Assembly (NCBI GenBank): GCA_016185545.1
Contig: JACPNJ010000002.1
Span: 1 to 51,298, forward strand
DNA from: Candidatus Yanofskyibacteriota bacterium
GTDB lineage: Bacteria > Patescibacteriota > Minisyncoccia > 2-02-FULL-40-12 > IGHO2-01-FULL-4-A
Reading direction: 5' to 3'
Length of the DNA: 51,298 nucleotides
Shown: in pieces, positions 9,992-46,879 of the stretch
How the letters are laid out: each line of letters starts with the position of its first letter
How positions within the stretch are numbered: the first letter of the stretch is position 1
Position numbers and translations under genes: made by a program
Notes under the pieces: generated by a model
What the model was told of the DNA's origin: nothing
The model's input: only the letters and a program-made list of their open reading frames with translations
The model's database searches: none

Positions 9992-12900
9992 CTATTTTAC
10001 AGGTTCGCCGATTACGTGCTTTGATAATGCCTGGCTGCTGATAAGAGTAATATCCTGGAAGCGATAGCCTTTTTGGACTAGAACTTCCGGACTGTTGATC
10101 CATCTAAACTGGTTGTTCTCGAATACATACACCTTCGGATCGTCCGTCAGTTTAACCAACGTACCATTAGGATACGGCAATTTCTCTGTTGTTTGAGTTA
10201 TGTCATTTCCGGCGGCGTAAGTCTCAAGAACTTCATTCGGTAAAACAATAACTTTGCTAAAATCAAAACCGTAAGATTTAAAGATATCAGCCGTGGTAAC
10301 CCAGCGTTTCTTTGTCTCGTGCAGAATGTAAACCTTGGGGCTGTCCAGCGGTTTAATTAGGGATCCGTCTGGTAAAAGTTGCTGGCTGGCAGGATACGGC
10401 AATTTCTCTGTTGTTTGAGTTATGTCATTTCCGGCGGCGTAAGTCTCAAGAACTTCATTCGGTAAAGTAATAACTTTGCTAAAATCAAAACCGTAGGATT
10501 TAAAGATATCAGCCGTGGTAACCCAGCGTTTCTTTGTCTCGTGGAGAATGTAAACTCTGGGACTGTCTAGCGGTTTAATTAGGGATCCGTCTGGTAAAAG
10601 TTGCTGGCTAAGCTGATCTCCCGTTTGATACTTATCCAACTGCTTATCGTCAACTACACCTACATGATTGAAACCAAAGCCCAAAGAATAAAAAGCCGCA
10701 ACAGAGGAAATCGGCCTCTTGATGTTATTCTTACTGTCAATCATGAAGACCGTCGGCGCGCTTTTGCCTTTTAAAAGAAAGGTCTGAATTATGCCGGGGG
10801 TTTCTTTATCCGAAAGCGGTTTGCCGAAAGGATAAGAATCTATGGCTAACGGATTCGGCACTATAACAACTTTAGGCTGGGTACCGGCCAGTCGTTGAAG
10901 CAACTTCCAACTGGGCACCCATCTTTTGGTTCCGCCTTCAATAAGGTAGACGCTTTTATTAAGTATTCCTCTTATCAGGACGCCTGAAGGATAAACAGCC
11001 AAGGAACTACCCACGCCCGGAAGCACCGTACTTTGGAGTTTCGGGGCTACATATCCGGTAGTTTGGGCGATATCAAGCGGTCTGGAAAACTCAGGGAAAG
11101 AAGTGACTCCTTCCTTAGGAACAGCCTTAATCTCTAACGGCTTGGAAAAGTTTTTAGCTAAATCCAGGGCATAAATGTTAAAATAGTAGGTTTTGCCATT
11201 CTGCAAGTTAACGACGATGGATTTTTTGACGTTATCTTCCAATATAGCTTGGCCATCATCGGGAGATAAAGGCTGGTGTTCTGTATTTTGCACGATTAAG
11301 ACACGGACAAAATCTGTATCAGATGGATTGTCCCATTCCAATAAAATCATGCCGTCGGCTTCAACAACTCTGGCAAGTTTAACCGGCTGGGGCGGGATTA
11401 AATCGATAGTGCTGCCTCCGCCACCACCTCCGCCACCACTGCCACCGCCGCCACCGCCGCCACTAATAACCGGGGCCGTGGGCGTAAAGCTTAAGACTGC
11501 GGGGTCAGAAACTATTCCCTGATCGTCATAACTGAAGATAGTATAATAGTAAGTCGTGCCGTTGGTTGTGCCGGTATCAGTGTAAGTCAGGGTTGGCGAG
11601 GCAACCTGGGCAAGGAGCTGAGCGGAATTGGGTGTAGTAAGAAAACCGGTGGTGTTGCGGTAGATACGGGCACCGGCATAAAGCTCGTAGGGTACCCCGT
11701 TATCATCAACGGGTGCTCCCCAGGAAAGGATAACTGAACCGTTTGAGGCGACAAGGTTCGCTATCTTCGGCGGTTTGGCAAGGCGGGCCAGAGTGGCGCT
11801 CACCTGATTGAGGCTCATGACGGTATTGCCCGCGGCATCGGTAGATACGATCTGTATATTGTAAGAAGTTTTACGCAACAGTCCTGCCAAAACCACCTGA
11901 TGGGTATTCGAAAGGGTGGCACTCAGCTGGGAGGCAGAACCATAGGCGGACGAGGTACCATAGTTAACCTTACTGATAGCCGGCTCATTGGTATTCCAGC
12001 TAATCGTGAGATCATAGGGGGAAGGAATGATTTGAATACCGGAAACAACCGGCGGGACAATATCCGCTGGAAGGACCACGCTACTGGTGGTAAAGCTCTG
12101 GTTTGATCCCGAGGCCGAATTTCCTGCGGCATCTCTGGATTTGACTCTGAAATTATAGGTTGTACCCGCGCTAAGACTTGTTAAGGAAACGCTATGGGCA
12201 GTCAGCATCGTTGTATTGAGGACGGTTTGTGAACCATAGGCGGTAGTCAAGCCGTACTCCACCTGGGTATCAGATACTTCATTGGTAGTCCAGTTAATGG
12301 TAACGGCATTGGCAGTGATATTCGAGGTTTGTATATTAGATATGACAGGCGCGGTAATATCCGGCGGAGATAAGGTGGTAAAGGTTAGATCTCCTGATAC
12401 AGCCAGATTACCGGCGGCATCCTTGGATTTCACCCGGTAGTGATAGAGGGTACCGGCAGAAAGGCCGGAAAGTAATTGCAAATGGGAAGTGACCAGACTT
12501 GTGTTCAGGGTTGTTGATGAACCGTAACTTGTAGTGGTACCGTATTCTACTTGCGTATCTGATGCTTCATTGGTAGTCCAGGTAACAGTGGCGCCTGATG
12601 TGGTCAGGGAATTGGCCAGGATATTGCTGATGACAGGGGCAGTGGTATCGGCCGGGGGAAGGGCTACCGTAGTACGGGAGGATACGTTGGAAAGAGGAGA
12701 AATATTGTTTGCTTCATCCAATGTCTTCATAGCAAAATAGTGGAGTACATTGGGCGATAAGCCGATGGCTATGTAGCTCTGGGTAGTATTAGCTATTTGG
12801 GGAGCAGGCAAACCGGATAAAATAAAGGCGGCATTCCAATTAGCATCAGTAATAGGTATTGTCGACCAACGCATTTGATAAGTTGAAGCAGTGCCGACGT

Positions 12901-15900
12901 TATTGTCATCGCCGGGAGCAGACCAGGATAAAGTTATAGATGTCTGGGTAGCGCTGACAGCGTTTAAATTGGTTATTTGGGAGGGAGGCGTGGTATCCGG
13001 AAGACCGGGAGTGGAAAAGGTACTATTGATGGAAACCGAACCGTTGGATTTGACCCGGTAATTGTAAGTAGTCGTCTGATTAAGGCCGGTAAGAGCAACT
13101 GAATGATTGGTCACCAGCGCGGAGTCAAGAATTGTGGCTGAACCGTAACTAACAGTTAAACCGTATTCTACCTGGGAATTGGCTGGAATATCAGTTAGCC
13201 AGGTTATAGTGGCGCCGGAAGAGGTAATGCCGGTAGCTTGGATGTTGGAGATTATGGGAGCCGGTGAAGCAGTAGTAAATGTGCCATCGGAAGAAACAGA
13301 AGTTAAATTACCCGAGTCAGTTGATTCAACTTGATAGTGATAGAGAGTAGAAGAAGTAAGACCGCCCAGAGCAACAGAGTGGTTAGTAACCAAAGTGTTG
13401 TCTACAACTGTAGAAATAGTATAGCTGGACGATAAACCATAATTAATTTTGGAGGTAGACGGTTTGTCCGTCGACCAGGTAATAACGGCAGAATTATTAG
13501 AAATGTTGGATGCTAAAACGGAAGAAATAACGGGTGGTTGTGAAACAGTAACCGTCACTGATGGGGAGGTAGTGCTGTTACCGGCCGCATCCCGCGCGAC
13601 CGCGCTTAGCATATGCGAACCGTTGGTTGTGGTTGTGGTATTCCAGGAGATTGAGAAAGGAGAAAGGGTGACCTCCGTTCCCAAGTTAACTCCGTCTAAT
13701 TTAAACTGGACGCCAACCACGCCCACATTGTCGGAAGCGGTGGCAGAGACAGAAATAGAAGAACCGGAGACAGTTGAGCCGGAGGTGGGAGCAGAGATAA
13801 AGACTGTGGGAACGGTGGTGTCGGGAGTGGGAGGGGGCGGAGGGGAGACAGCTCCAGCCGGCACAATGGCCCAAATGGGATTGTTGTTCAAAGGATTCGG
13901 GCTCACAAGGGTCTGGTTGAGGATATTATCTCTGCACCAGTTCCACGCAGTGCTCCCGCCGGTCTCACCGGCTATTTGAGAACATGCCGCCATCGCTATG
14001 TAAGGATAGCCACCGTCGGCATCTCCCAATAAACGAAAAGATTCGCATGGGGTATTTGTGAACGCCTGACCACCAATGGTATCCCAGCAGTTTGAGTTCT
14101 GTACAGTCGACACGAAACCGGTCTTTAAATCGGAGAAAGTAGTATAAAAGCTATTCGTTAAAGTTTTGATTACAGGAATTTCATAAGCGCCGATTAGATA
14201 AGGATTGTAAGCGGGATCGGTAATCGTGTTGACGATAAATGGACTTGACCATGTAAGCAAGTCGCCGGATTTGAAACCAAGCTGCTTAGAGAAGCCGAGC
14301 GCCCAGGTGACCATATTGTTCATCCAAAATGCCTCGCCGCGCGAAACTTGAGTACCATCCACGGGCCAGTCGGTAAATGGCTCTCCGCTGTTGCCGCGTT
14401 CCCATTGGCGCAATGGTGAGGGGGGCCACGCGGTCCTTACCGTGGTGTTCCCCCAGTTCCACATGGTATTGCCCTGATAACTGGTACCGATAATGTTCCT
14501 TGCGCCTTCCCATGCCGCCAACGTATCGTCCATTAATTGGGAAAAGTAGGTTTTCTCCGGAGTCCCATCGGGAATTATAAAAGCAGAAGCAGCTCTAGTT
14601 CTTAATCCCCATGCCTCTCCTCGAATCTCACAGGCGCCTTGCGCCCAGCCGCAAATTGCGCCAAAGGTTCCATTGGGGCCACGGCTTCCGGAATCACCAC
14701 CGGAGACGGAGCCATCGGGAGAAAATGCGACCCATCCCGACCAGAACATCAGTTCCTCCAGATACCAATGGTCCCCAGTGAGCAGGTACTGAACATAAAA
14801 CGGCTCCGGTAAATGGGACAATTGGGGATTCCAGCCACTGCTTGTATGACTGCCGACAAATCCGATGCTGTCCGCACCAGTCGCTACGCTCCAATTATCA
14901 CCCCTCTGCCCTGCTGATAATGTCGGGCGTTGGCTGATGGACATGACTCGTCCAATGCCGGAAACAGTGCCGGCACGATCCATAGATTTTGCGGAATTGC
15001 CCTCGCGAACATGTACTGGCCAGGCCGCGGCTAAGTCAGCCATGCCTAAAGCTCGATCCTTTAGACAGGGCGCGCTCGCATTACCGGAGCCCATGGCAAA
15101 AATCCATTGAACTGACCACTTTGGAAATGGAGCAATCTCTGGACGACTGCCCGGAGCTCCCATAGACTTTTGCCAGAAATCGCCGGAGTCATACAAATCC
15201 TTCGCAGCAGCATTCCAATTGTTACAAGCCGAAGTAATTGTGGAGTTTGAAACAATTTTAGTCTGGTCATAATTTGGCAAGGATTTGGTGGATAAAACAT
15301 AGGACAAATTATGGTCCATATTGACTGTTGCCGGAGTACCTCCAATCCAGTATGAAACTCCATTCGGCTTAATCCATCTGCTCATGGCTGTTTGAGTGAA
15401 TGTGGCACGACTATAAACTGTGGAGGGGTTGGCAAAACCCACGGTAATAGCCAATGAATAGGATTGATCCTGAAGTACGCCGGTTGTTGAAATTTCTCCA
15501 ATCGCCCGAACAGAAACTTTGTTTATTCCCGGCCAGAATGTCGCTTCAAAACGGGGACGGAAAGACCGGTTAGCGTCACAACCCATATCATACGTTCTTG
15601 CAACAGAATCATCTGCCAAAATAATTGTCTGCACGATCTGCCCCGATGTCCATACTGTGTAGTGGCCGTTTGCCAGCATGGTTCTTGCGGATTTTGTCTG
15701 CGCTCCCAAACCACAGTTAATGGAAATAGTCGCGTCAAAATCAAAGTTAGCGCCAAGCATCTGTGCCTGCGTCAATGGCGTGTTGTTGCCGGAAGTCTGG
15801 TTTTGGAATGTGACGGTGGCATTACTGCCTGCCGTGATGGTCGGCATAAGGAAAGAGATGACGGCATGCTTCACGGAACCGTCAGACCATCTGGTCTTCA

Positions 15901-16027
15901 CATCTGCCTGGGTGGTGACGGCAGTGCCATTCACAAGGGCTTGGGGGAAGTTGGCTATTTCTCCCTGAACAAAGGGGCGGGCAAAGGACACGGGATAGTT
16001 GGTAGAGGTAGAGCCGGAAATAATCAT
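9992..16027 (-). CDS. Giant extracellular protein: carbohydrate-active-like N-terminal region, Ig-like and multiple FN3 domains, Gly-rich linker, C-terminal 'KRWV' repeats
   Basis: 2011-aa ORF. The same frame stays open upstream of the ATG through another FN3 repeat to about 16305, so this is probably the 3' part of a larger gene. Confidence 0.85.
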   Translation of the reverse strand: MIISGSTSTNYPVSFARPFVQGEIANFPQALVNGTAVTTQADVKTRWSDGSVKHAVISFLMPTITAGSNATVTFQNQTSGNNTPLTQAQMLGANFDFDATISINCGLGAQTKSARTMLANGHYTVWTSGQIVQTIILADDSVARTYDMGCDANRSFRPRFEATFWPGINKVSVRAIGEISTTGVLQDQSYSLAITVGFANPSTVYSRATFTQTAMSRWIKPNGVSYWIGGTPATVNMDHNLSYVLSTKSLPNYDQTKIVSNSTITSACNNWNAAAKDLYDSGDFWQKSMGAPGSRPEIAPFPKWSVQWIFAMGSGNASAPCLKDRALGMADLAAAWPVHVREGNSAKSMDRAGTVSGIGRVMSISQRPTLSAGQRGDNWSVATGADSIGFVGSHTSSGWNPQLSHLPEPFYVQYLLTGDHWYLEELMFWSGWVAFSPDGSVSGGDSGSRGPNGTFGAICGWAQGACEIRGEAWGLRTRAASAFIIPDGTPEKTYFSQLMDDTLAAWEGARNIIGTSYQGNTMWNWGNTTVRTAWPPSPLRQWERGNSGEPFTDWPVDGTQVSRGEAFWMNNMVTWALGFSKQLGFKSGDLLTWSSPFIVNTITDPAYNPYLIGAYEIPVIKTLTNSFYTTFSDLKTGFVSTVQNSNCWDTIGGQAFTNTPCESFRLLGDADGGYPYIAMAACSQIAGETGGSTAWNWCRDNILNQTLVSPNPLNNNPIWAIVPAGAVSPPPPPTPDTTVPTVFISAPTSGSTVSGSSISVSATASDNVGVVGVQFKLDGVNLGTEVTLSPFSISWNTTTTTNGSHMLSAVARDAAGNSTTSPSVTVTVSQPPVISSVLASNISNNSAVITWSTDKPSTSKINYGLSSSYTISTVVDNTLVTNHSVALGGLTSSTLYHYQVESTDSGNLTSVSSDGTFTTASPAPIISNIQATGITSSGATITWLTDIPANSQVEYGLTVSYGSATILDSALVTNHSVALTGLNQTTTYNYRVKSNGSVSINSTFSTPGLPDTTPPSQITNLNAVSATQTSITLSWSAPGDDNNVGTASTYQMRWSTIPITDANWNAAFILSGLPAPQIANTTQSYIAIGLSPNVLHYFAMKTLDEANNISPLSNVSSRTTVALPPADTTAPVISNILANSLTTSGATVTWTTNEASDTQVEYGTTTSYGSSTTLNTSLVTSHLQLLSGLSAGTLYHYRVKSKDAAGNLAVSGDLTFTTLSPPDITAPVISNIQTSNITANAVTINWTTNEVSDTQVEYGLTTAYGSQTVLNTTMLTAHSVSLTSLSAGTTYNFRVKSRDAAGNSASGSNQSFTTSSVVLPADIVPPVVSGIQIIPSPYDLTISWNTNEPAISKVNYGTSSAYGSASQLSATLSNTHQVVLAGLLRKTSYNIQIVSTDAAGNTVMSLNQVSATLARLAKPPKIANLVASNGSVILSWGAPVDDNGVPYELYAGARIYRNTTGFLTTPNSAQLLAQVASPTLTYTDTGTTNGTTYYYTIFSYDDQGIVSDPAVLSFTPTAPVISGGGGGGGSGGGGGGGGSTIDLIPPQPVKLARVVEADGMILLEWDNPSDTDFVRVLIVQNTEHQPLSPDDGQAILEDNVKKSIVVNLQNGKTYYFNIYALDLAKNFSKPLEIKAVPKEGVTSFPEFSRPLDIAQTTGYVAPKLQSTVLPGVGSSLAVYPSGVLIRGILNKSVYLIEGGTKRWVPSWKLLQRLAGTQPKVVIVPNPLAIDSYPFGKPLSDKETPGIIQTFLLKGKSAPTVFMIDSKNNIKRPISSVAAFYSLGFGFNHVGVVDDKQLDKYQTGDQLSQQLLPDGSLIKPLDSPRVYILHETKKRWVTTADIFKSYGFDFSKVITLPNEVLETYAAGNDITQTTEKLPYPASQQLLPDGSLIKPLDSPKVYILHETKKRWVTTADIFKSYGFDFSKVIVLPNEVLETYAAGNDITQTTEKLPYPNGTLVKLTDDPKVYVFENNQFRWINSPEVLVQKGYRFQDITLISSQALSKHVIGEPVK
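10170..10609. repeat. Two near-identical 222-bp tandem repeats inside the giant ORF
   Basis: Copies start at 10170 and 10392 (ggatacggcaatttctctgttgtttgag...); they encode 'ASQQLLPDGSLIKPLDSP.VYILHETKKRWVTTADIFKSYGFDFSKVI.LPNEVLETYAAGNDITQTTEKLPYP'. Confidence 0.9.
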
Positions 16028-16262
16028 GCTATTGCCGGCCGCCGGCGGAGGCGACGGAGCCGAAGCCGTGGTGTTAAATGTATTGTCCCCCGACGTTGCC
16101 AGATTGCTTGAGGCGTCTTTTGATTTGACTCGGTAGTGATAGAGAGTGGAAGCAGTAAGGCCGGTAAGATTGGCTGAATGAGCAGCAACGAGCGAGGTAT
16201 TAAGTGCGGTCGAAAAGCCATAACTCGTCGTGGTGCCGTATTCTACTTGGGTATCCGCCGCT

Positions 16263-19200
16263 TCATTTGTCGTCCAGGTTATAGTGGCGCCGGAGGAAGT
16301 TATGGAAGGTTGAGGCGGAAAGTCCTGAAATAGTTTGGGAATGCGCGGTAACAGGGCTTGTATTAAGTATCGTGGAGTTTCCGTACGCAGTGGTCAGGCC
16401 GTACTCTACTTGAGTATCAGAGGATTCATCTGTGGTCCAGGTTATGGTAGCGCCGGAGGAAGTGACGGAAGAGGCGGCGACTGCGGAGATGACGGGGGCG
16501 GTGGTGTCGGGAGGCGGAGGCGTGCTAGCTGTCAACTTAAGAATGAATGAATTTTGATCCGACTCCAGGATAAGCACGAAACATTTACAATCAGCTACAT
16601 AGCGAAAACGGCCCGAGCCTCCATTCGTGTTCGGGCATCCAAAAGAACTTGTCTGACACGTAGCAACCGGGGCCGTACCGCTAACAGTAAGTACTGAACA
16701 AGAAGGCGTTCCTCCGCCATTTGGATTGAAGGTATACACAGTCCGATTAATCGTGTTGTAGCTTACGAAGAGACCTAAATCCGGTTCCCAATCCCACATC
16801 GGGTATGAAATAGTGCCAATCCCATTGCAACCAGCAGGAACCGATGCTGTAATATCTGTAACAGTATAAGAACTCGCTCCCACCGCCGCGTTAATCTTAT
16901 AGAATTTAGGGGTACCAAGATTCAGAACACCGTTGTTTGAGGGGCCAACTGCATAGAATAGATTGTCGACTGGGTCGAATGCCAGAGAGACCTCCAAAGG
17001 AAACGCTACTCCACCTGGACCATCGCCTTTATTCACGCACGAAAAAGAAGAAAGGCTGGTGGTGGTGCAAAGAAACATGGTCCCATTCGAGGGCGCGACC
17101 AACAAGAGTTTACTCTCGTTGGTATGCCAGCGGGCCATCGCGCTCGGAGATTGCCAAAAGCCAGTGCTGGGATTGGCACCAGTAACTGTTGCTTTCGTCC
17201 AGGTTAGGTTAGCAAGGTCGAAGTTCCAAATACTTTTTACCGTGTCGCCACCAGCAGAGCAAATAGAACCTCCGAAACTAGACACCGCCCTCAATGAAGG
17301 AATGTACTCGAATGCATCATAAGTGTGCCGTGCGCCCGGCCCAGTTGTATTAAGCATCGTATCTGTGCATTGCTGTCCTGAATTCCCATTCACGCTGGTC
17401 ACACCATCGTCCATCGTATGTGACGGTTCAGTGATCCTGGTCATAGCTCCAGTCAAAAGCGAGAGTGCGTATACCGAGTTGTCTTTGGAATCCTGGTGTC
17501 CGCCACCCCAAATGACGGCCCTGTTACCAATTACATCGAACGCACCACCTCCATAAGCATCAATCACTTGCGCCGAACTATTTGCGTACACATACCCATT
17601 AAAATCGGGTGGAAAGATTGTCGGAGTTTGTACCAGCTTTGATGTAGCACCAAGGTTCGTCCAACCTATGGGAAAATTGGTCCCCCCTCCGCCGGGAGCA
17701 GTAGTCGTAAACGTAAAGTCGCCTGAAGTCGCCAGGTTTCCGGATGAATCTTTGGATTTAACCCGGTAATGCCAGAGGGTTGAAGCGGTAAGTCCTGAGA
17801 TAGTTTGGGAATGCGCGGTAACAAGACTTGTGTTGAGTACTGAAGGATTTCCATATGCAGTAGTCAAACCGTATTCTACTTGGGTATCTGACGCTTCATT
17901 TGTCGTCCAGGTTATCGTGGCGCCGGAAGAAGTTATGGAAGAGGCGGCGACTGCTGAAATGACGGGGGCGGTGGTGTCGGGAGTAGATGATATTGCCTGC
18001 GTCGTTACACCCACGGAAGCCGACTGTCCGGATTCATTCCCTGACGCGTCACGCGCGGATACAGTATAAGTATACGTTGTGGAAGGGGTAAGGCCGGTGT
18101 TTGAAAAAAAATTAGTTGCGGATGTCGCAATCTCTGACCCATTGCGGAATATCCCGTAGCCCGTCACTCCAACATTGTCCGTGGAAGCGGTCCAGGAGAG
18201 ATTGATTTGGGAAGATGATACGGCAGTGGCGGAGAGGCTGGTGGGGACGGACGGGGCAACGGTGTCGGGAGCAGTAGTCGTAAACGTAAAGTCGCCTGAA
18301 GTCGCCAGGTTTCCGGATGAATCTTTGGATTTAACCCGGTAATGCCAGAGGGTAGAAGCGGAAAGTCCGGAGATAGTTTGGGAATGCGCGGTAACAAGAC
18401 TTGTGTTGAGTACTGAAGGATTTCCATATGCAGTAGTCAAACCGTATTCTACTTGGGTATCTGACGCTTCATTTGTCGTCCAGGTTATAGTGGCGCCGGA
18501 GGAAGTTATGGAAGAGGCGGCAACTGCGGAGATGATGGGGGCGGTGGTGTCAGAAGAGGGAGGCGGAGTGGGAGTCGGCGTTGTTGCGCCAGCAGCCCTG
18601 AAAGACGCCATCTGTACAATCCAGGTTTGGGCGGAATTGTTGAAAGTCACGGAATTGGAACCCGTGCTTAAAACGTTCTTGTCCTCGGAGGCGTTGTTTT
18701 GAATGAAGCTTCTCTGGGTGAAACCGACACCACTTCCTCCCGTACCTTCAAAAAGCGCCGCTCCAAAAATCAGTTCATCCGAAAAATTAGTGATAGCGGC
18801 GCCGCTTGAAGCATCGGCGCTGGTTCCAGTAGCGAAGGCTGTTATATCAAGAGGAGTAGAGAGATCAGCGCCGGAATATTCATGGGCGGTTATGGATTTA
18901 CGGCCGTTAAAGATTCCGGAGAAGGTGGCTGTGACATTGAAGGCTGTGCCACCTACGATATTTTTGGCATACCATATCTCTTGGCTCCAGGATGCCAGTA
19001 CTCCGGACCCGACAGTGGGACCGACGGCTTTCGCGTATGTGTTGCCGGCGGTATCAGTGATACTGCTTACGCTTTGCGTGCTTGAGTTATACCAAACCCA
19101 GACAACCATCAGATTGGAATTGCCGACGGGATTCGTGAAATTAGCGGTTGTTACCGAATTGTTGCTTAAGAGCTCCGATCTTTCTGCCAGCTGGACAAAT

Positions 19201-19334
19201 GTAACGGCCGCATTGGCTTCTCCAATCTGAAAATTATAGACACCGGCGGTAGCGGTTACAATTACCAGTAAACTAAGGAGTGTTTTTTTGATGGTATTTG
19301 AGATATTTGTTTTCTCCATGGTTAACCGATTCAA
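16263..19334 (-). CDS. Secreted FN3-repeat / Kelch-like protein; 3' end frameshifted at a repeat junction
   Basis: Signal peptide, FN3 repeats 'ISAVAASSITSSGATITWTTNEASDTQVEYGLTTAYGN', Kelch-like 'NRAVIWGGGHQDSKDNSVYAL'. Ends abnormally in 'SGLSASTFHNFLRRHYNLDDK*' where FN3 should continue. Confidence 0.8.
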   Translation of the reverse strand: MNRLTMEKTNISNTIKKTLLSLLVIVTATAGVYNFQIGEANAAVTFVQLAERSELLSNNSVTTANFTNPVGNSNLMVVWVWYNSSTQSVSSITDTAGNTYAKAVGPTVGSGVLASWSQEIWYAKNIVGGTAFNVTATFSGIFNGRKSITAHEYSGADLSTPLDITAFATGTSADASSGAAITNFSDELIFGAALFEGTGGSGVGFTQRSFIQNNASEDKNVLSTGSNSVTFNNSAQTWIVQMASFRAAGATTPTPTPPPSSDTTAPIISAVAASSITSSGATITWTTNEASDTQVEYGLTTAYGNPSVLNTSLVTAHSQTISGLSASTLWHYRVKSKDSSGNLATSGDFTFTTTAPDTVAPSVPTSLSATAVSSSQINLSWTASTDNVGVTGYGIFRNGSEIATSATNFFSNTGLTPSTTYTYTVSARDASGNESGQSASVGVTTQAISSTPDTTAPVISAVAASSITSSGATITWTTNEASDTQVEYGLTTAYGNPSVLNTSLVTAHSQTISGLTASTLWHYRVKSKDSSGNLATSGDFTFTTTAPGGGGTNFPIGWTNLGATSKLVQTPTIFPPDFNGYVYANSSAQVIDAYGGGAFDVIGNRAVIWGGGHQDSKDNSVYALSLLTGAMTRITEPSHTMDDGVTSVNGNSGQQCTDTMLNTTGPGARHTYDAFEYIPSLRAVSSFGGSICSAGGDTVKSIWNFDLANLTWTKATVTGANPSTGFWQSPSAMARWHTNESKLLLVAPSNGTMFLCTTTSLSSFSCVNKGDGPGGVAFPLEVSLAFDPVDNLFYAVGPSNNGVLNLGTPKFYKINAAVGASSYTVTDITASVPAGCNGIGTISYPMWDWEPDLGLFVSYNTINRTVYTFNPNGGGTPSCSVLTVSGTAPVATCQTSSFGCPNTNGGSGRFRYVADCKCFVLILESDQNSFILKLTASTPPPPDTTAPVISAVAASSVTSSGATITWTTDESSDTQVEYGLTTAYGNSTILNTSPVTAHSQTISGLSASTFHNFLRRHYNLDDK

Positions 19335-19432
19335 ATTCTAGTTCTAGTATAGCATGGAAACATAGAGAAAATAACAAAACTGTTGATAATAAATGAGATA
19401 ACCAAACATTTTATTTCAATTAATATCCGATC

Positions 19433-19465
19433 ATAATAAAAGCCCCGTTACGGGGCTTTTATTAT
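19433..19465. terminator. Terminator hairpin
   Basis: ataataaaagccccg tta cggggcttttattat, perfect 15-bp stem. Confidence 0.85.
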
Positions 19466-19698
19466 GGGAAGGGACCAAGTCATCAGTATTTATCCTGTCT
19501 GGTTCATTTAGGTTTGTTTGGTTGTCGTGGACGTTCTAACACTTGGGTATTGGCATTCAAAATCCCTTGTGAAACTATTAATAGGTTTATTAATGTTTTG
19601 ATAAATTTAATAAGTATTTTTTGTCTATGGATATAATTATTATATGGTATAGCCTGATTTTAAATAATTTTTTAATTTAAATGGTGTTGCATGCTTAT

Positions 19699-20994
19699 TT
19701 ATCTAAACTTTACCCCCCCCCTCACCTTTACTCCTCCTCTGACCTTAATATCGGGAGCGCTAGTCGGTTCAGTATAGTTAAAATAGCCGCTGAATTTAAA
19801 AAGCGGATCGCCTTGAGCGCTCCAGCTGGCTGGAAGGGTGCTAACACTGCAGATATAACTCGATTGGCTGGCCGCGACGGTGTCATATTCGTTCATCCAT
19901 TTGGTACCGTCAACTGAAAAAGCGGGACCATTAGAAGCAGTGGCAATCCAATATGTAGTCCCATTTATCAAAGAAAAGGTACCAGTCCCGGAAATGGCAT
20001 AACGGGTTTTGGTGGCGTTTAAAGATAATACACTGCTTATGCGATCAAGACGCGTAGTTGGACCGCTGCTGTAAAGGCCAAGCTCAACAGTATCACTAGC
20101 AGCACCTGTATCAAGCCTGCCATACCAACTGCCGCCGGAAATGGTGGAACCAGTGGCTCCCGGAAAAGCGCCGGCATTGTAAGCCAACGCGCAATCATCC
20201 GTACCATCCTCGCTCGCGCCGTCACCTGTGAATCCGTAAGTCGGGTCAACTGTTACCGGATAAGCGGCGTTGTCTAAAAAATCACGCGGCACAGTAACGC
20301 TCAAAACCCCGTCGGCGTAGGAAAGCTTAGCCCATATTTCCTTGCCCGTGGCGTCAATTATTTTGGGTCGGAATATGTGCATTACTTTTCCCGCGGCATA
20401 ATTAATATCCCCGATTCTGTGGTTGCGCTTGGTTTTGGAATAGACAGCATAAGAACCCACTACATTTTCCGGTCGATAAGACGTTCGTTTTCCGTCTTTG
20501 TCAAAACATTCCGTTTCAGTGCAGGACACGGACCTGGGATTTTTGTTACCGTCCACAAAGTCCTCATCCAGCGGTTTTTGATAAAAGAAATCCAAATCTT
20601 CCCAGCCGTCAAGCGTGAAATCAAATTTGTTGCTCGTGGGGTTTTCTTTTAAAATAAGTTCTACTTCAACTCCGCCGTCTTCCATATGACTCGCGGCCGC
20701 GAGCGGATACGCGTGAATTTCTTCTTTTTCGCCTTTCCACTCCATCCTGTTAGTCAAAAATGTTCTTTCGCCGGGAACTTGAAGTTGGGGGTAAGAAACG
20801 CCCAAACTTACTTCCCCGTTCCATTTATTCAAGGTTACTTTTGGCTGGGTTCTAAGCAGTTCTACATTTATTGTTCCGGCATTTGCCAAGGTTGATTTTA
20901 TCTCAATTTTATATTTATCCGTTTTTTCTGTAGATAAACCGAATTCAACAACAAAAATTAAGGCTATTATCGACAAACCTAAAAATAGTTTCAT
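19699..20994 (-). CDS. Secreted protein with C-terminal VKxRGG-type tail
   Basis: 431-aa ORF, N-terminal signal segment; ends 'APDIKVRGGVKVRGGVKFR*'. Confidence 0.85.
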   Translation of the reverse strand: MKLFLGLSIIALIFVVEFGLSTEKTDKYKIEIKSTLANAGTINVELLRTQPKVTLNKWNGEVSLGVSYPQLQVPGERTFLTNRMEWKGEKEEIHAYPLAAASHMEDGGVEVELILKENPTSNKFDFTLDGWEDLDFFYQKPLDEDFVDGNKNPRSVSCTETECFDKDGKRTSYRPENVVGSYAVYSKTKRNHRIGDINYAAGKVMHIFRPKIIDATGKEIWAKLSYADGVLSVTVPRDFLDNAAYPVTVDPTYGFTGDGASEDGTDDCALAYNAGAFPGATGSTISGGSWYGRLDTGAASDTVELGLYSSGPTTRLDRISSVLSLNATKTRYAISGTGTFSLINGTTYWIATASNGPAFSVDGTKWMNEYDTVAASQSSYICSVSTLPASWSAQGDPLFKFSGYFNYTEPTSAPDIKVRGGVKVRGGVKFR

Positions 20995-21000
20995 TTTAAA

Positions 21001-24000
21001 TTATTTTATTTGTTCTATGCCTACGGAATAGAAGGTGGAAGGACTTGATTGGTTATTATATTCGGTTTGTACCCAATCGGCGGATAAGACCGAGTTTACA
21101 ATTCTAACCTCATCGAACTTGCCATGCCAGCTTCGGTTGTTCGTTGGAATTCTATTTCCAATAACATAAGCATCCGCATTTACGCTGGCAATCCCGGATG
21201 CATTGAAGTTGATGATAAGCGGTTTGGCCGCGCCGTCCACGTAAAAAATCGGGTCATTCGATGCCAAGCTTGAGTCGTAAGTTACCACAATATGATGAAA
21301 CACACCCGCGGACGGCGGCGCCACGGCCCATTCCGCCTGTCCGTTTGAGAAAAAACGGGAATAATACAACGCATCACCGTTATAGACATTGTTGTAAAGA
21401 AGCTCGGCATTTGCCCCTCCCGTTTGTTTTTCAAAATAGCGTCCCAAACCGTTTTCTCCTTCGCTGGTTCGAAGCGCCCAAAATTCATAGCTCCTCGCGC
21501 TGTTATTTAACGTAACATCTGTTCTTATAGAATCGCCTGCACCGTCGAAGCTAGCCGCTCCATCAATCCTCCCGCTTGTTGCCACAGACCCAGAAATTGT
21601 TCCGCTTACACCATTTACGGAATTGACGGCGTTCAGTGTCGCGCCGTTTGATAGATGCCATACACCCGTGTACCCGGCGTTCCATGTTTCGGCCACATTG
21701 CCCTGGAAAGAAGAAATGGCCGGGTTACCGTAGCAGACCGCGAAGGTCGTATCCGAGAGATGCGAAACATTCGGTATCTTTACCCATGCATTCACGACTC
21801 CAGTCGCGGAGTTATAAGTTTCCATTTCCCAATTCAGAAGCGTAAGGCACGTTGAGTCGGTGGCAAAAACAATATCATGTCCGTTGCTGTTTTGCGCCTT
21901 TCCCCCGTTCGGAACAGTGGCAAGGTAATTGTACGTACCGCTTACGAGAACAGGAAAGTTGGCTTGATCGGTATTTGGAACCTTGAGGTGATCAATTGTA
22001 ATGACGCGAGAGAAAGAATAGCCGCTTGCTGGCAATGACAGAGTTGTCGCGCCCACCATAGTGGACTGCCCCGATACATTTCCCGCCGCGTCAAACGCGG
22101 ATACTGTGTAAGAATACGCGGTTGAAGGGGTAAGACCGGTGTCATTATAGGAGGTTGTGACACTTGTTCCCGCTTGGATTCCATTTCTGAATATCCTGTA
22201 ACCGGTTACTCCCACGTTATCCGTGGAAGCGGTCCAGGAGAGATTGATTTGGGAAGATGAGATGACAGTGGCGGTGAGGTTAGTGGGGACGGAAGGGGCG
22301 GTGGTGTCGGGAGTAGTCGTCGTAAACGTAAAGTCTCCGGAAGTCGCCAGGTTTCCGGATGAATCTTTGGATTTAACTCGGTAGTGCCAGAGGGTTGAGG
22401 CGGAAAGTCCTGAAATAGTTTGGGAGTGCGCGGTAACGGCGCTTGTATTAAGTATCGTGGAGTTTCCGTACGCAGTGGTAAGCCCGTATTCTACTTGGGT
22501 GTCAGAAGATTCATCTGTCGTCCAGGTTATCGTGGCGCCGGAGGAAGTGACGGAAGAGGAGGTGACTGCTGAAATGACGGGGGCGGTGGTGTCGGGAGGC
22601 GGAGGGGTAGCACCACTACCGGAAGTGAGTTTTAAAATATACGCATTGTTGTCTATGTCGTTAACGAGAACGTGGGCGTTTAGTGAGGGAATATATCGCA
22701 ACCGCCCAAACGTGCCGTTAAATTCACTGGAGTTTATCGGTCCGCCGGCAAAAGTCTGCGAGGTGCAGGTTTTAGTATCCGGATTAAATAAGTAAACCGT
22801 ATTGCCGCTATTCGGCCAGCCGACAATGCGGTCTAAAATCGGATCATAGCTCAAGCCGGGATATCTTGCGCTCATGAGCGCTCCGCAACCGCCAGTGGAG
22901 GCCTGCGCGCTCCAATCCTGAACCGCGTAATTGCTCCCCGGAGCAATACTTATAGCTTTGACAAAAGCTCCAGAGTTTCCGAATTCAGTTCCAAAAAAGA
23001 TAAAAAGTTTTTTTACAGGATCAATAACGCCGTTAGACTCGAAAGGTACGGATTCGAAGCCGTTTAATAAAGCATATGTGTTTGTGTCGTAATTATACGA
23101 CCAAAATTTGCTTGTGTCTGTGGCAAATACTAAGCGAGTATTTGGGTCATAATCCGAAAGGACCACATTATTGAAGACGCTTGCCTGGGTTGGCCCGTTT
23201 GTGGGGTCCATGCGAGTCCATTGGAGCGTGGATAAATTCAAAGTCCATGTCGCGGAAGTGGTATTTCCAGCCGCACAGGCCCTGGAACCGCCATGAGCAT
23301 ACATCCTATCGGCATGCTGAACATACGCCAAACCGCCATAAGTGTGCCGGGAATTGGGTTTGCCGTCGGCCATAGTCTCCGGACAGGAAGAATCAGCAAT
23401 TGGCACAGAGGGATCATTCAGGCGGGTCATGGTAATCGGATTGGCACCCAGGTTCAGAGAATATATTTCATTTCCATAATAGTCGTTGTGTCCCCCTCCC
23501 CAGATGATCAGCCGGTCACGCATAGTATCCGCCATGGCGCCACCCCACGCGCCAGTAACCCATTCGCAAAAAAAACCAAAATCATACGTTGTTCCGCCAA
23601 AATTATTCGGCGGACAAACCGCACGAATCTTCGTATTCAAAAGCTCGTTCCAACCGATGTTGTAGCTACTGACTGTTGCCACAGCTGTCGTAAACGTAAA
23701 GTCCCCCGACGTTGCCAGATTGCTTGAGGCGTCTTTTGATTTGACTCGGTAGTGATAGAGAGTGGAAGCAGTAAGGCCGGTAAGATTGGCTGAATGAGCA
23801 GCAACGAGCGAGGTATTAAGTGCGGTCGAAAAGCCATAGCTCGTCGTGGTGCCGTATTCTACTTGGGTATCTGACGCTTCATTTGTCGTCCAGGTTATCG
23901 TGGCGCCGGAGGAAGTTATGGAAGAGGAGGTAACTGCTGAAATAACGGGGGCTGTGGTGTCGGGAGCAGTCGTCGTAAACGTAAAGTCTCCGGAAGTCGC

Positions 24001-24867
24001 CAGGTTTCCGGATGAATCTTTGGATTTAACTCGGTAGTGCCAGAGAGTGGAAGCGGAAAGTCCGGAGATAGTTTGGGAATGCGCGGTAACAGGGCTTGTA
24101 TTAAGTATCGTGGAGTTTCCGTACGCGGTGGTAAGCCCGTATTCTACTTGGGTGTCAGAAGATTCATCTGTGGTCCAGGTTATCGTGGCGCCGGAGGAAG
24201 TGACGGAAGAGGAGGTGACTGCTGAAATGACGGGGACGGTGGTATCGGGAACAGTTTCAAGCGTCGCATATAAAGACCAGTGAGAGGACGTTGTTGAGGG
24301 AGCCGTTGAAAACGTAACCGGCATAGTTCCATATATAAAAGAGTAGTACCTGCCGCTTATGCCGGCGGTAACGTTTTTTCTGAAGGCAAGGGTATTGCTA
24401 CTTGGCAGATAAGCCAGCCAGTATGTACCCGCGGGCAGAGAGACGGGACTGATGACGTTGGTCGTGTTCCAACCGGTGACAGGAGTGAAACTCGCGGTTT
24501 CAGCTCGTTTGGCACCGGGTCCTCCTCCGGGGCCGGTGGCGTCATAGATGCCAAGGCGGAGAGAGCCGGCGGCGGTAGTAATATAGAAAGAGAGGCTTTG
24601 GATAGTGGCGGATTGAGAGAGTAAGGTGTTTTGGGCTACGAGGAGATTAGCGTTTCTACTGTCATCAAGACTTAAGATGTTAGTTTCTCCGATGGTGATG
24701 GCTGCAGCCAGTACATATCCTCTATTATTATTTCCCAAGGGCTTGTCAAAAGTTAGGACTTGCAAATGCTGAACGAAAATCAAGACTAAAACCGCCAAGA
24801 AAAGCGCTGCCAAGAAAAGCGCTGCTTTCCTTAGAGAAGAACTAAAATCATTAAATGTTATTTTCAT
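21001..24867 (-). CDS. Secreted FN3 / Kelch-like / DUF2341-like / LamG multidomain protein
   Basis: 1288 aa; signal/TM segment, several near-identical FN3 repeats, 'DRLIIWGGGHNDYYGNEIYSLN' Kelch-like region, C-terminal LamG-like 'GAASFDGAGDSIRTDVTLNN...FDEVRIVNSVLSADWV'. Confidence 0.85.
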   Translation of the reverse strand: MKITFNDFSSSLRKAALFLAALFLAVLVLIFVQHLQVLTFDKPLGNNNRGYVLAAAITIGETNILSLDDSRNANLLVAQNTLLSQSATIQSLSFYITTAAGSLRLGIYDATGPGGGPGAKRAETASFTPVTGWNTTNVISPVSLPAGTYWLAYLPSSNTLAFRKNVTAGISGRYYSFIYGTMPVTFSTAPSTTSSHWSLYATLETVPDTTVPVISAVTSSSVTSSGATITWTTDESSDTQVEYGLTTAYGNSTILNTSPVTAHSQTISGLSASTLWHYRVKSKDSSGNLATSGDFTFTTTAPDTTAPVISAVTSSSITSSGATITWTTNEASDTQVEYGTTTSYGFSTALNTSLVAAHSANLTGLTASTLYHYRVKSKDASSNLATSGDFTFTTAVATVSSYNIGWNELLNTKIRAVCPPNNFGGTTYDFGFFCEWVTGAWGGAMADTMRDRLIIWGGGHNDYYGNEIYSLNLGANPITMTRLNDPSVPIADSSCPETMADGKPNSRHTYGGLAYVQHADRMYAHGGSRACAAGNTTSATWTLNLSTLQWTRMDPTNGPTQASVFNNVVLSDYDPNTRLVFATDTSKFWSYNYDTNTYALLNGFESVPFESNGVIDPVKKLFIFFGTEFGNSGAFVKAISIAPGSNYAVQDWSAQASTGGCGALMSARYPGLSYDPILDRIVGWPNSGNTVYLFNPDTKTCTSQTFAGGPINSSEFNGTFGRLRYIPSLNAHVLVNDIDNNAYILKLTSGSGATPPPPDTTAPVISAVTSSSVTSSGATITWTTDESSDTQVEYGLTTAYGNSTILNTSAVTAHSQTISGLSASTLWHYRVKSKDSSGNLATSGDFTFTTTTPDTTAPSVPTNLTATVISSSQINLSWTASTDNVGVTGYRIFRNGIQAGTSVTTSYNDTGLTPSTAYSYTVSAFDAAGNVSGQSTMVGATTLSLPASGYSFSRVITIDHLKVPNTDQANFPVLVSGTYNYLATVPNGGKAQNSNGHDIVFATDSTCLTLLNWEMETYNSATGVVNAWVKIPNVSHLSDTTFAVCYGNPAISSFQGNVAETWNAGYTGVWHLSNGATLNAVNSVNGVSGTISGSVATSGRIDGAASFDGAGDSIRTDVTLNNSARSYEFWALRTSEGENGLGRYFEKQTGGANAELLYNNVYNGDALYYSRFFSNGQAEWAVAPPSAGVFHHIVVTYDSSLASNDPIFYVDGAAKPLIINFNASGIASVNADAYVIGNRIPTNNRSWHGKFDEVRIVNSVLSADWVQTEYNNQSSPSTFYSVGIEQIK

Positions 24868-38530: not shown

Positions 38531-38537
38531 TTAGCTC

Positions 38538-38700
38538 GGGCTTGACGGGCAATACCTCCTATCACCATTTGAATTCCCAGCGAGAATTCTGCATTCCGTC
38601 AAAAGCGTGGATTTTACTCGCAGTGTTTTACTATTATACTGCTCGCAAACCGTGCAATCCACTCTTTTGACGGTGCTATGAGGCATTGCCTGTCAAGCCC
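38538..38700 (-). repeat. Covarying foldback element family C, copy 1
   Basis: Reverse complement gggcttgacaggcaatgcctcatagcaccgtcaaaagagtggattgcacggtttgcgagcagtataat...ggtgataggaggtattgcccgtcaagccc; aligns to copies 2 and 3. Confidence 0.85.
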
Positions 38701-39288
38701 TCATGATAACCCGCCAGTCATTTCCAAAACTGCGTTTAATGCGCTAGGCAACTCAGTTACGCCGTCGCTACCGCTAAAATGACCTTTGTCGTGCTCAATT
38801 ATGATTTTAGTGTTCAGCCTCTCTTCGAATAACTTTTTATTTTCTTCAAAGGGCACAACCGGATCATTATCACCAAAAATTGCTACGAAATTATTTGTTA
38901 AGCCCTTTATTAAATTAAAATTGATCGGGGTTTCAATCCAAGGTCTGCCAATTATTTTTTCTTCTTCTGTTTCTAAATCGCCCAGAACAAACCAGCCAGA
39001 TACAAAAACCGTACCGCCAACTTTTTTATCTACGGGTAAACTTTCCAAATATCGCAAAATGGTCTGACAACCGATACTGTGGCCAACAAAAAAAGTATTT
39101 TCATTAACATCACCGACAATTTTGGAAAGATGCGAAACCCACACCTCAATTTTTGGCACAGCAGGTTCTGGCATAGCCGGAACTTGCACCTCAAAACCGC
39201 GTGATTCTAATTCTTTTTTCAACCACGGAAACCAGCCCTCTTCGGGGTAACCGTCCCAACCGTGAATTATAAAAACCCCTTTTTTCAT
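38701..39288 (-). CDS. RBBP9/YdeN-type alpha/beta serine hydrolase
   Basis: 'FIIHGWDGYPEEGWFPWLKKELESRGFEV', nucleophile 'FVGHSIGCQTILRYL', 'FGDNDPVVPFEENK'. Confidence 0.92.
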   Translation of the reverse strand: MKKGVFIIHGWDGYPEEGWFPWLKKELESRGFEVQVPAMPEPAVPKIEVWVSHLSKIVGDVNENTFFVGHSIGCQTILRYLESLPVDKKVGGTVFVSGWFVLGDLETEEEKIIGRPWIETPINFNLIKGLTNNFVAIFGDNDPVVPFEENKKLFEERLNTKIIIEHDKGHFSGSDGVTELPSALNAVLEMTGGLS

Positions 39289-39310
39289 CTTAGACTTAAG
39301 AGAGAGAACC

Positions 39311-39505
39311 CCGTCAAAAATTATTTAAAGCGAGCCATTATGCCTTATAGCACCGTTGAAAGAGTGGATTGCACGGTCGCCGAGCAGTATAATGTTTGGG
39401 CGGTAGCCCACTGCGAGGCGAATCCACGCTTTCAACGGAGCGACGCAACCTCGCTGGGGTTGCTAGCGGTGATAGAAGGCATGATGGCGAGCTAATTTTT
39501 GACGG
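39311..39505 (+). repeat. Covarying foldback element family C, copy 2
   Basis: ccgtcaaaaatta...atgccttatagcaccgttgaaagagtggattgcacggtcgccgagcagtataat...ggtgatagaaggcatgatggcgagctaatttttgacgg. Confidence 0.85.
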
Positions 39506-39514
39506 TGGCGAGTG

Positions 39515-45322: not shown

Positions 45323-45826
45323 TCAATCCTCCTTTAAAGTAAATTTCGTATATGATGGCTTATGTTCTACTAATTCTTCCGGCTTAAACCAAACATTAAT
45401 TTCTGTCTGCGCTTCCTCGGGTGAAGCCGAGGCGTGAATAAGATTAAAAACTCCGATTTTCTTGTCATCAGCATAACCATATGAAACGTGGGTATAGTCA
45501 CCCCTGATAGTGCCAGACGCGGCAACCTTGGGTTCGGTAGCGCCCACCATTTTTCTTGCAACCTCAACCATTTCTATACCCTCAAGTGCTAATGCCAAAA
45601 TAGGTCCGGAGGTCAGCATATCAATCATCCTTTGCCTAATTACATCTCCCCTCCTTTTGGCCAAATCTTCGGTATAATGCTTCATGGCAGTATCTTTTTC
45701 AGAAACAAGAACTTTCATGCCGACAATTTTAGCGCCTACACGCTCAAAACGAGTGATTATTTCACCGATTATTCCTCGATCAAGAGCATCAGGTTTTAAT
45801 AAAATTAGGGTTCTCTGCAGTTTCAT
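45323..45826 (-). CDS. ndk: Nucleoside diphosphate kinase
   Basis: 'QRTLILLKPDALDRGIIGEIITRFERVGAKIVGMK', 'GTIRGDY', 'NLIHASASPEEAQTEI'. Confidence 0.96.
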   Translation of the reverse strand: MKLQRTLILLKPDALDRGIIGEIITRFERVGAKIVGMKVLVSEKDTAMKHYTEDLAKRRGDVIRQRMIDMLTSGPILALALEGIEMVEVARKMVGATEPKVAASGTIRGDYTHVSYGYADDKKIGVFNLIHASASPEEAQTEINVWFKPEELVEHKPSYTKFTLKED

Positions 45827-45838
45827 TGTTTTTAATTT

Positions 45839-46005
45839 TAGAGTTGGGTGAGTAATGCCTCATAGCACCGTCAAAAGAGTGGATTGCACGGTTTGCGAGC
45901 AGTATAATAGTAAATCACTGCAAGCAAAATCCACGCTTTTGACGGAACGCAGCAACCTCGCTGGGGTTGCTAGTGGTGATAGGAGGCGTTACTCACCCAA
46001 CTCTA
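45839..46005 (+). repeat. Covarying foldback element family C, copy 3
   Basis: tagagttgggtgagtaatgcctcatagcaccgtcaaaagagtggattgcacggtttgcgagcagtataat...ggtgataggaggcgttactcacccaactcta. Confidence 0.85.
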
Positions 46006-46879
46006 TTTTATAATTTTGACCGTCAAGTATTAATTCAACGGCACCATCAATATCCGTTCTATAATATTTTATACCATAATTTTCCAGCCGCTCCAAAACT
46101 TCTTGGTGTGGATGCCCGTATTTATTTTTCTTTCCGACTTCAATAAACGCCAGCACCGGGTTAACTGCTTTCAAAAAATTCTCAGTCGTTGAAGTTTTAC
46201 TGCCATGATGTCCAATTTTTAAAAATTTTGCTGACAAGTTTGTACCGCTGGTTAATAATTTATATTCCGTCTTGGCCTCGGCATCACCCGTAAACATTAT
46301 ACTATCATTGCCATAATCCAAACGAAAAATTACCATAGCGTCGTGAGGATTTTTTAATACTTCTTGGTCGTCAATTTTAGGATAAAATGGGTATAAAATA
46401 GTAAGTTTTGCGCTACCGCCCAAATCAATAACTTGGCCGGCTTGAGCTTGAGTTGTCGGAATTGAAGATTTCTCCTTGGTCCACTCTGCATATTCCGCGG
46501 TGTTATATGGAGTGTGATTTTCAATAATTTGCCCGACTTCATATCTTTTCAATACCTCTATGAGTCCCGTAACGTGGTCGGCGTGCGGATGAGTCAAAAT
46601 AACAAGATCAACTGAGTGGTCGTAAAACGGCATAACCCGGCCAAGTTCTTGCAAGATTTTACTATCAGGTCCGCCATCAATTAGAATTTGATTGCCGTTA
46701 AAATCAATCAGTTCCGCGTCACCCTGTTCGACGTCAAGAAAATAAACATGGAGCAGGCCGTCAAAACCGGCAACCGTCGGCAACGCCCAAAAACTTAAAA
46801 TTGCCGCGCTGGCAATCAGGGCAAAAACCAACCACTCAAGTTTAGATAATTTTCTGGAAAGCGACTCGCTAAGCATCAA
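45989..46879 (-). CDS. ComEC/Rec2-like metallo-beta-lactamase-fold hydrolase
   Basis: 'YFLDVEQGDAELIDFNGNQILIDGGPD', 'LTHPHADHVTGL', 'MFTGDAEAKTE', 'LKIGHHGSKTS'. Confidence 0.95.
   Translation of the reverse strand: MMLSESLSRKLSKLEWLVFALIASAAILSFWALPTVAGFDGLLHVYFLDVEQGDAELIDFNGNQILIDGGPDSKILQELGRVMPFYDHSVDLVILTHPHADHVTGLIEVLKRYEVGQIIENHTPYNTAEYAEWTKEKSSIPTTQAQAGQVIDLGGSAKLTILYPFYPKIDDQEVLKNPHDAMVIFRLDYGNDSIMFTGDAEAKTEYKLLTSGTNLSAKFLKIGHHGSKTSTTENFLKAVNPVLAFIEVGKKNKYGHPHQEVLERLENYGIKYYRTDIDGAVELILDGQNYKIELGE

What the first reader, a model, noticed from the sequence alone, without database searches (positions are those of the whole stretch)
45839..46005. Outer stem of element C differs in every copy, and in copy 3 one arm is the end of the neighbouring gene
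The outermost arms are unrelated between copies but self-complementary within each: gggcttgac...gtcaagccc (copy 1); ccgtcaaaaatta...taatttttgacgg (copy 2); tagagttgggtgagtaa...ttactcacccaactcta (copy 3). In copy 3 the right arm encodes the last residues and stop of the MBL hydrolase (IELGE*), so the left arm is an inverted copy of gene sequence. This hints that insertion or maintenance generates inverted duplications of flanking DNA (snap-back or template-switch synthesis), or that paired flanks are selected.
Basis: partly seen in the sequence, partly recalled or inferred. Interest (0 to 1): 0.85.

Follow-up and report, generated by a model that had tools for sequence, protein, structure and literature searches.

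The report
Mobile hairpin element with locus-specific stem
A short hairpin-forming mobile DNA element, scattered in tiny bacteria of the Yanofskybacteria group, carries its own outer stem, lands at gene ends (where it can supply a gene's last codons and stop signal), and changes both sides of that stem together while its inner part is shared almost unchanged between species.

Summary
The paired arms are real: copy 3 (45839-46005) has a 16-bp perfect outer stem, and all three window copies have self-complementary outer arms. The arms are not unrelated. Copies 1 and 3 fit one consensus built from other genomes (about GAGCTTGGCGAATA, p<=0.0004). Copy 2 has a second recurrent arm type. Empty-site orthologues settle the striking claim. 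In G002 and G006 the hydrolase ends KIVN* or KIK* with no element; in G000 and G003 it ends IELGE* or IELDE* with it. So the element gave the gene its tail; the arm is not an inverted copy of old gene sequence. Two other genes show the same. The element is a roughly 135-nt core plus arms: about 15 copies here, 10-14 in three congeners, sporadic elsewhere in the order (Yanofskybacteria). Cores from different species reach 98.5% identity where genes are about 75-80%, and core relationship does not predict arm type, so cores and arms have been reshuffled. In the outer stem 113 cells changed on both sides and only 19 on one side, without G.U excess, which favours DNA-level arm-templated correction over RNA selection (inferred). 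No transposase, Rfam family or RAYT link was found.

The parts
45839..45854 (+). Copy 3, left outer arm (TAGAGTTGGGTGAGTA), type A
   Evidence: pairs perfectly with 45990-46005; absent from empty-site orthologues
45855..45989 (+). Copy 3, core (ATGCC...GGCGT): imperfect terminal repeats, long helix with GCAYGG bulge and GTAWAAT loop, second hairpin with CGCTGG loop
   Evidence: 98.4% identical to a core in another species at another locus
45990..46005 (+). Copy 3, right outer arm; read on the minus strand it encodes ..IELGE and, with base 45989, the TAA stop of the MBL hydrolase
45835..45839 (.). Left ATTTT of a candidate 5-bp target duplication (partner 46005-46009)
   Evidence: only weak support, not seen at most other copies
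46005..46009 (.). Right ATTTT of the candidate target duplication
45989..46879 (-). Metallo-beta-lactamase-fold hydrolase whose last codons and stop come from the element
   Evidence: (PF00753)
45323..45826 (-). Nucleoside diphosphate kinase, next gene of the conserved MBL-ndk pair
   Evidence: (PF00334)
38536..38702 (-). Copy 1 (type A arms GGGCTTGACAGGCA / TGCCCGTCAAGCCC at 38687-38700 and 38538-38551), between a serine hydrolase and a D-Ala-D-Ala carboxypeptidase
39309..39508 (+). Copy 2 (type B long arms 39309-39339 and 39483-39508; core 39340-39482), between the serine hydrolase and a class II (D/K/N) aminoacyl-tRNA synthetase, likely AspRS

Best explanation
The feature is one copy of a non-coding, palindrome-forming mobile element. 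A core of about 135 nt (two hairpins closed by imperfect terminal repeats) is enclosed by an outer stem that is part of the element. Copies insert in both orientations in the few spare bases at gene ends. Each end closes all reading frames within about 26 nt, so a gene that runs into it gains a short harmless tail such as ELGE and a stop codon. After insertion the outer stem stays with its locus and diverges. When one arm mutates, the other is rewritten from it by DNA synthesis on the hairpin (template switching, palindrome correction), so the stem differs between copies but stays paired within each. Cores recombine between copies, including copies that came from other species, so cores look alike and outer stems do not. 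Shown: the element family, empty and filled sites, gene tails supplied by the element, arm consensus, paired changes, and independence of core and arm type. Inferred: arm correction by template switching, recombination as the cause of core exchange, and mobility by an unknown enzyme.
For: Empty/filled alleles at the MBL-ndk locus, the YqeY-like locus, the zinc-ribbon locus and a tRNA-proximal locus. Type-A arms share a consensus across species. Outer stem: 85.7% of cells paired against 28-43% when slid; 113 cells changed on both sides, 19 on one side. G.U and A.C mispairs are about equal in the outer 14 pairs, 10 and 14. L073 has its terminal-repeat mismatches perfected on one side. Unique perfect palindromes have arisen inside single copies L049 and L055. 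Cores 98.4-98.5% identical across species at different loci, while the MBL-ndk genes are 73-78% identical in DNA within the genus. The nearest core neighbour has the same arm class in 27 of 47 copies, 23.2 +/- 4.0 expected by chance. Orthologous loci carry cores of different subfamilies (70-91% identical). Both orientations relative to genes, and stop codons in or at the arms.
Against: No transposase, autonomous partner or consistent target duplication was found. Template switching is inferred from pair statistics; no single recent event with a known ancestor was caught. The core has conserved unpaired motifs, which suggest selection for a structure. L005 may have a host-derived arm. Same-site pairs with different cores could be independent insertions at hot spots instead of core exchange.
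Confidence: 0.6

Rival explanations
1. The element is a structured RNA or single-stranded DNA whose stems, the outer one included, are kept by selection. Ordinary compensatory mutations then make the outer stem differ by copy.
For: All helices covary (31 of 46 pairs with double changes). Conserved loops GCAYGG, GTAWAAT and CGCTGG. A weak G.U excess on one strand in the inner part of the outer stem (25 against 10, p = 0.017).
Against: No Rfam match of note. The G.U excess is not significant in the core helices (23 against 14, p = 0.19) and absent in the outer 14 pairs (10 against 14). G.U is under 2% of core cells. Both orientations relative to genes. G-C to C-G swaps have no easy intermediate.
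Confidence: 0.25
2. Insertion generates an inverted copy of the host flank, so each arm is derived from the target.
For: In copy 3 one arm is coding. The L005 arm resembles the empty allele of another genus at 12 of 15 positions.
Against: At MBL-ndk neither arm exists in the empty alleles, and the ancestral gene end differs. Arms share a consensus across loci and species.
Confidence: 0.05
3. The element inserts into the loop of pre-existing hairpins such as terminators, so the arms were there first.
For: Arms flank the core symmetrically, and cores sit in two or more arm classes.
Against: The empty sites at four loci are not hairpins. The exact core of the arm consensus is found no more often than a control outside known copies. 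A core-less arm pair (L156) still carries core end sequence, so it is a deletion.
Confidence: 0.04
4. Arm variety arose in a few master copies before insertion. Each new insertion brings its own arms, and same-site pairs are independent insertions at hot spots.
For: Cores at orthologous sites belong to different subfamilies. MBL-ndk is filled in G000 and G003 but empty in G002, the sister of G000 by these genes.
Against: Arms at the same locus can be alike while cores differ (L072/L034 12 of 14, the top 2.6% of pairs; L035/L065 and L004/L025 share arms by eye).
Confidence: 0.15

Closest known systems
Miniature inverted-repeat elements (MITEs)
   Same: Short, non-coding, multi-copy, inverted ends, filled and empty sites, tolerated at gene ends
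   Different: Outer inverted repeats vary between copies instead of being the conserved part; no consistent target duplication; no parent transposon found
REP sequences / REPINs mobilised by RAYT (Y1 tyrosine transposase)
   Same: Palindromic intergenic repeats in bacteria; RAYT genes occur in most genomes with clear copies of the element
   Different: REPs are 20-40 bp; none of the 12 RAYT loci held has an element on it, and several have their own different hairpins
Template-switch maintenance of hairpins and quasipalindrome correction (PMC8794818, PMC7202029)
   Same: Predicts stems that stay perfect, multi-base paired changes and new perfect hairpins from one event
   Different: Described in RNA genes and reporter loci; here it would act on a mobile element, copy by copy
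Interspersed palindromic elements that donate coding sequence, such as Rickettsia palindromic elements (from memory, not tested)
   Same: A mobile palindrome ends up as part of a protein
   Different: Here only the last few residues and the stop are supplied, not an in-frame insert

Membership tests
MITE | Terminal inverted repeats | tested here: met
   but the outer 14 bp are not conserved between copies
MITE | Constant-length target-site duplication | tested here: inconclusive
   ATTTT in copy 3 and ATTT in its G003 counterpart; none clear at L005, L072, L073, L074, L078
MITE | Presence/absence polymorphism at orthologous loci | tested here: met
MITE | Related autonomous transposon supplying the transposase | tested here: not met
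   element ends elsewhere in five genomes are known copies, deletion relics or chance matches; only genomes held were searched, so the claim of full MITE membership is not made
REP/RAYT | Repeat flanks, or is shared with, the RAYT gene | tested here: not met
   no element within the stretches held around 12 RAYT genes, up to 1.5 kb each side; own hairpins there
Structured non-coding RNA | Covarying helices | tested here: met
Structured non-coding RNA | G.U tolerance on one strand | tested here: inconclusive
   weak, absent in the outer arms
Structured non-coding RNA | Match to a described RNA family | tested here: not met
   the only matches over the element are two miRNA models far below their cut-offs
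Structured non-coding RNA | Transcription | not testable with these tools
   no RNA-seq on hand
Template-switch palindrome correction | Arms homogenised within copy, divergent between copies | tested here: met
Template-switch palindrome correction | Multi-base templated change in a lineage with a known ancestor | tested here: inconclusive
   L073 terminal repeat is suggestive; no strain series

The most novel reading that the evidence does not exclude
A mobile element whose termini are not a fixed sequence but any self-complementary stem. Arms are rewritten in pairs at each locus by hairpin-templated DNA synthesis, while a structure-recognised core is exchanged freely between loci and species, so the element is recognised by shape and leaves new stop codons and tails on genes.
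Probability: 0.3. Interest if true: 0.78.

Novelty: new variant of a known kind. Interest (0 to 1): 0.58.

Why it matters
It gives a natural, many-copy test of how palindromic DNA keeps its arms matched: selection on the pairing, or copying of one arm from the other. It shows, with empty-site alleles, that a mobile palindrome can hand a gene its last codons and stop in a streamlined genome. It also documents an apparently undescribed element that seems to pass between species of an uncultured candidate-phylum group.

Tried and rejected
Rfam search: nothing of note on the element. RAYT/Y1 transposase as mobiliser: co-occurs in many genomes but sits away from the element, with its own hairpins. 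Reverse transcriptase as mobiliser: present in nearly all genomes with or without the element. Free arm palindromes as targets: not found. Similar DNA in phage and plasmid records: none. Viral-contig scan: machine gave no answer. Literature on palindromic elements in this phylum: nothing specific found. A first reading by eye that G.U outnumbered A.C about two to one was weakened by the formal count. The second pair count used a mis-registered helix for the long stem and is not relied on.

Full report
OBSERVATION. Copy 3 lies at 45839-46005 between the ndk gene (45323-45826, minus strand) and an MBL-fold hydrolase (45989-46879, minus strand). Its outer 16 bases pair perfectly with the last 16, and the minus strand of the right arm reads ..IELGE*. 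Copies 1 (38536-38702, minus) and 2 (core 39340-39482, arms 39309-39339 and 39483-39508) also have self-complementary arms. The fold is 12-13 standard deviations below dinucleotide-preserving shuffles. The pairing is therefore real.

THE FAMILY. The window lies in an 853-kb genome with about 15 copies of the element. Three genomes of the same genus have 10-14 matches each, and some other genomes of the order have fewer. A covariance model found no further carrier among 287 sampled genomes of the phylum, though that search uses strict filters. A pattern search names nearly all carriers as Candidatus Yanofskybacteria. No similar DNA was found in phage or plasmid records. The core has two hairpins inside imperfect terminal repeats, with near-invariant unpaired motifs GCAYGG, GTAWAAT and CGCTGG, and every helix covaries.

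ARMS ARE PART OF THE ELEMENT. Type-A arms from 27 loci agree at 6.6 of 14 positions on average, against 3.8 +/- 0.09 for shuffled arms. A matrix built only from other genomes recognises the arms of copies 1 and 3 (p = 0.0004 and 0.0002). Copy 2 has a second recurrent arm type (..GCGAGCCATT|ATGCC, with further paired sequence CCGTCAAAAATTA outside) seen at about 20 other loci. So the three arms in the window are two arm classes, one of them strongly diverged, not three unrelated sequences.

EMPTY SITES. The MBL-ndk pair is conserved across the family. In the congener G002 the hydrolase ends ..QNYKIVN* with ndk a few bases on. In another genus, G006, it ends ..ENYKIK*, and G004 and G007 also lack the element there. 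In G000 it ends ..QNYKIELGE* and in G003 ..QNYEIELDE*, both with the element. The coding arm is therefore the gene's new tail, supplied by the element; the other arm is not an inverted copy of older gene sequence. The same is seen for a YqeY-like protein (family named from its sequence by eye; empty G003 ..KELLG*, filled G000 ..KELLGSD*, filled G002 ..KELLGSG*) and a protein with a zinc-ribbon-like CxxC pattern (empty G003 ..CPKI*, filled G000 ..CPESRLGE*). None of the empty sites is a hairpin. The element ends close all reading frames quickly, and in six cases a flanking ORF stops at the same base of the arm.

CORES AND ARMS HAVE SEPARATE HISTORIES. Cores at different loci in different species are up to 98.5% identical, while the MBL and ndk genes are 73-78% identical in DNA within the genus. 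Cores at orthologous occupied sites belong to different subfamilies (70-91%), although arms at such sites can be nearly the same, for example GGGTCTGACTAGTA and GGGTCTGGCTAGCA. Core relationship does not predict arm class (27 of 47 nearest neighbours agree, 23.2 +/- 4.0 by chance). Recombination confined to the homologous core explains why cores look alike and outer stems do not. Separate insertions at hot spots are an alternative. For MBL-ndk the pattern (filled G000 and G003, empty G002, with G002 nearest to G000 at 85/89 support) needs either a loss or two insertions.

HOW THE STEM STAYS PAIRED. In the outer 18 pairs of 25 type-A copies, 85.7% of cells are standard pairs (28-43% when slid). 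113 cells have changed on both sides and 19 on one side only. Intermediates are about as often A.C as G.U in the outer 14 pairs (14 and 10), and G-C/C-G and A-T/T-A swaps occur at the same pair. In the core helices G.U and A.C are 23 and 14 of about 1250 cells (p = 0.19). This pattern is expected if one arm is copied from the other in DNA, as proposed for hairpins in RNA genes by PMC8794818. It is less expected from stepwise selection on an RNA. Two further signs: in L073 the two non-Watson-Crick pairs of the terminal repeat have both become perfect through changes on one side, and perfect palindromes found nowhere else in the genomes searched have appeared inside two copies. These are inferences from pattern; no dated event was caught.

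MOBILITY. Presence and absence at orthologous loci and near-identical cores in different species imply movement, but no enzyme was identified. RAYT genes co-occur in many of the carriers but have their own hairpins and no element beside them. Reverse transcriptases occur with or without the element. Unmatched element ends were deletion relics or chance matches. A candidate 5-bp duplication (ATTTT) flanks copy 3, and ATTT flanks its G003 counterpart, but other copies show none.

VERDICT. Observation partly confirmed; interpretation partly supported (maintenance yes, creation from host flank no). The element is best described as a new variant of a known kind, a mobile palindromic repeat, with an unusual separation of stem and core.

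Noticed in passing
L005 (G000:C8:1073-1209) and L107: The arm AGAATCTGGCGGCA does not fit the arm consensus, and an element-free orthologue in another genus has AATCTGACGAGCCATG right after the stop codon (12 of 15 alike): a possible host-derived arm or a relic.
   Followed up: partly
L156 4696-4754; L155 about 3213-3280: Internal-deletion relics: paired arms and terminal repeats remain, most or all of the core interior is gone.
   Followed up: yes
L055 about 1531-1590; L049 about 1540-1575: Perfect palindromes inserted inside single copies of the element, found nowhere else in six genomes searched.
   Followed up: yes
L102, L103, L111: Another palindromic repeat family (GCGCGTTTTGC..GCAAAACGCGC with AAAATTACAAAC flanks) occupies some of the same gene-end sites in G002 and G003.
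   Followed up: no
L048, L049, L050, and L102 about 610-810: A third arm class (GGCGGAGGCCATAGAGG..CCTCTATGGCGGAGCC); the G002 copy sits after the aminoacyl-tRNA synthetase where G000 has type B, inside an extra 15-bp stem AACGGTTTTCCTTGC.
   Followed up: partly
L091, L097, L089 (RAYT genes): Y1 transposase genes flanked by their own hairpins, for example ACGACTTGCGATGTCGT: ordinary REP-like repeats of this group.
   Followed up: no
window 10169-10609 and 12194-24261: Two 219-nt tandem copies, and seven to nine copies of a roughly 100-300 nt repeat that may encode repeated protein domains.
   Followed up: no
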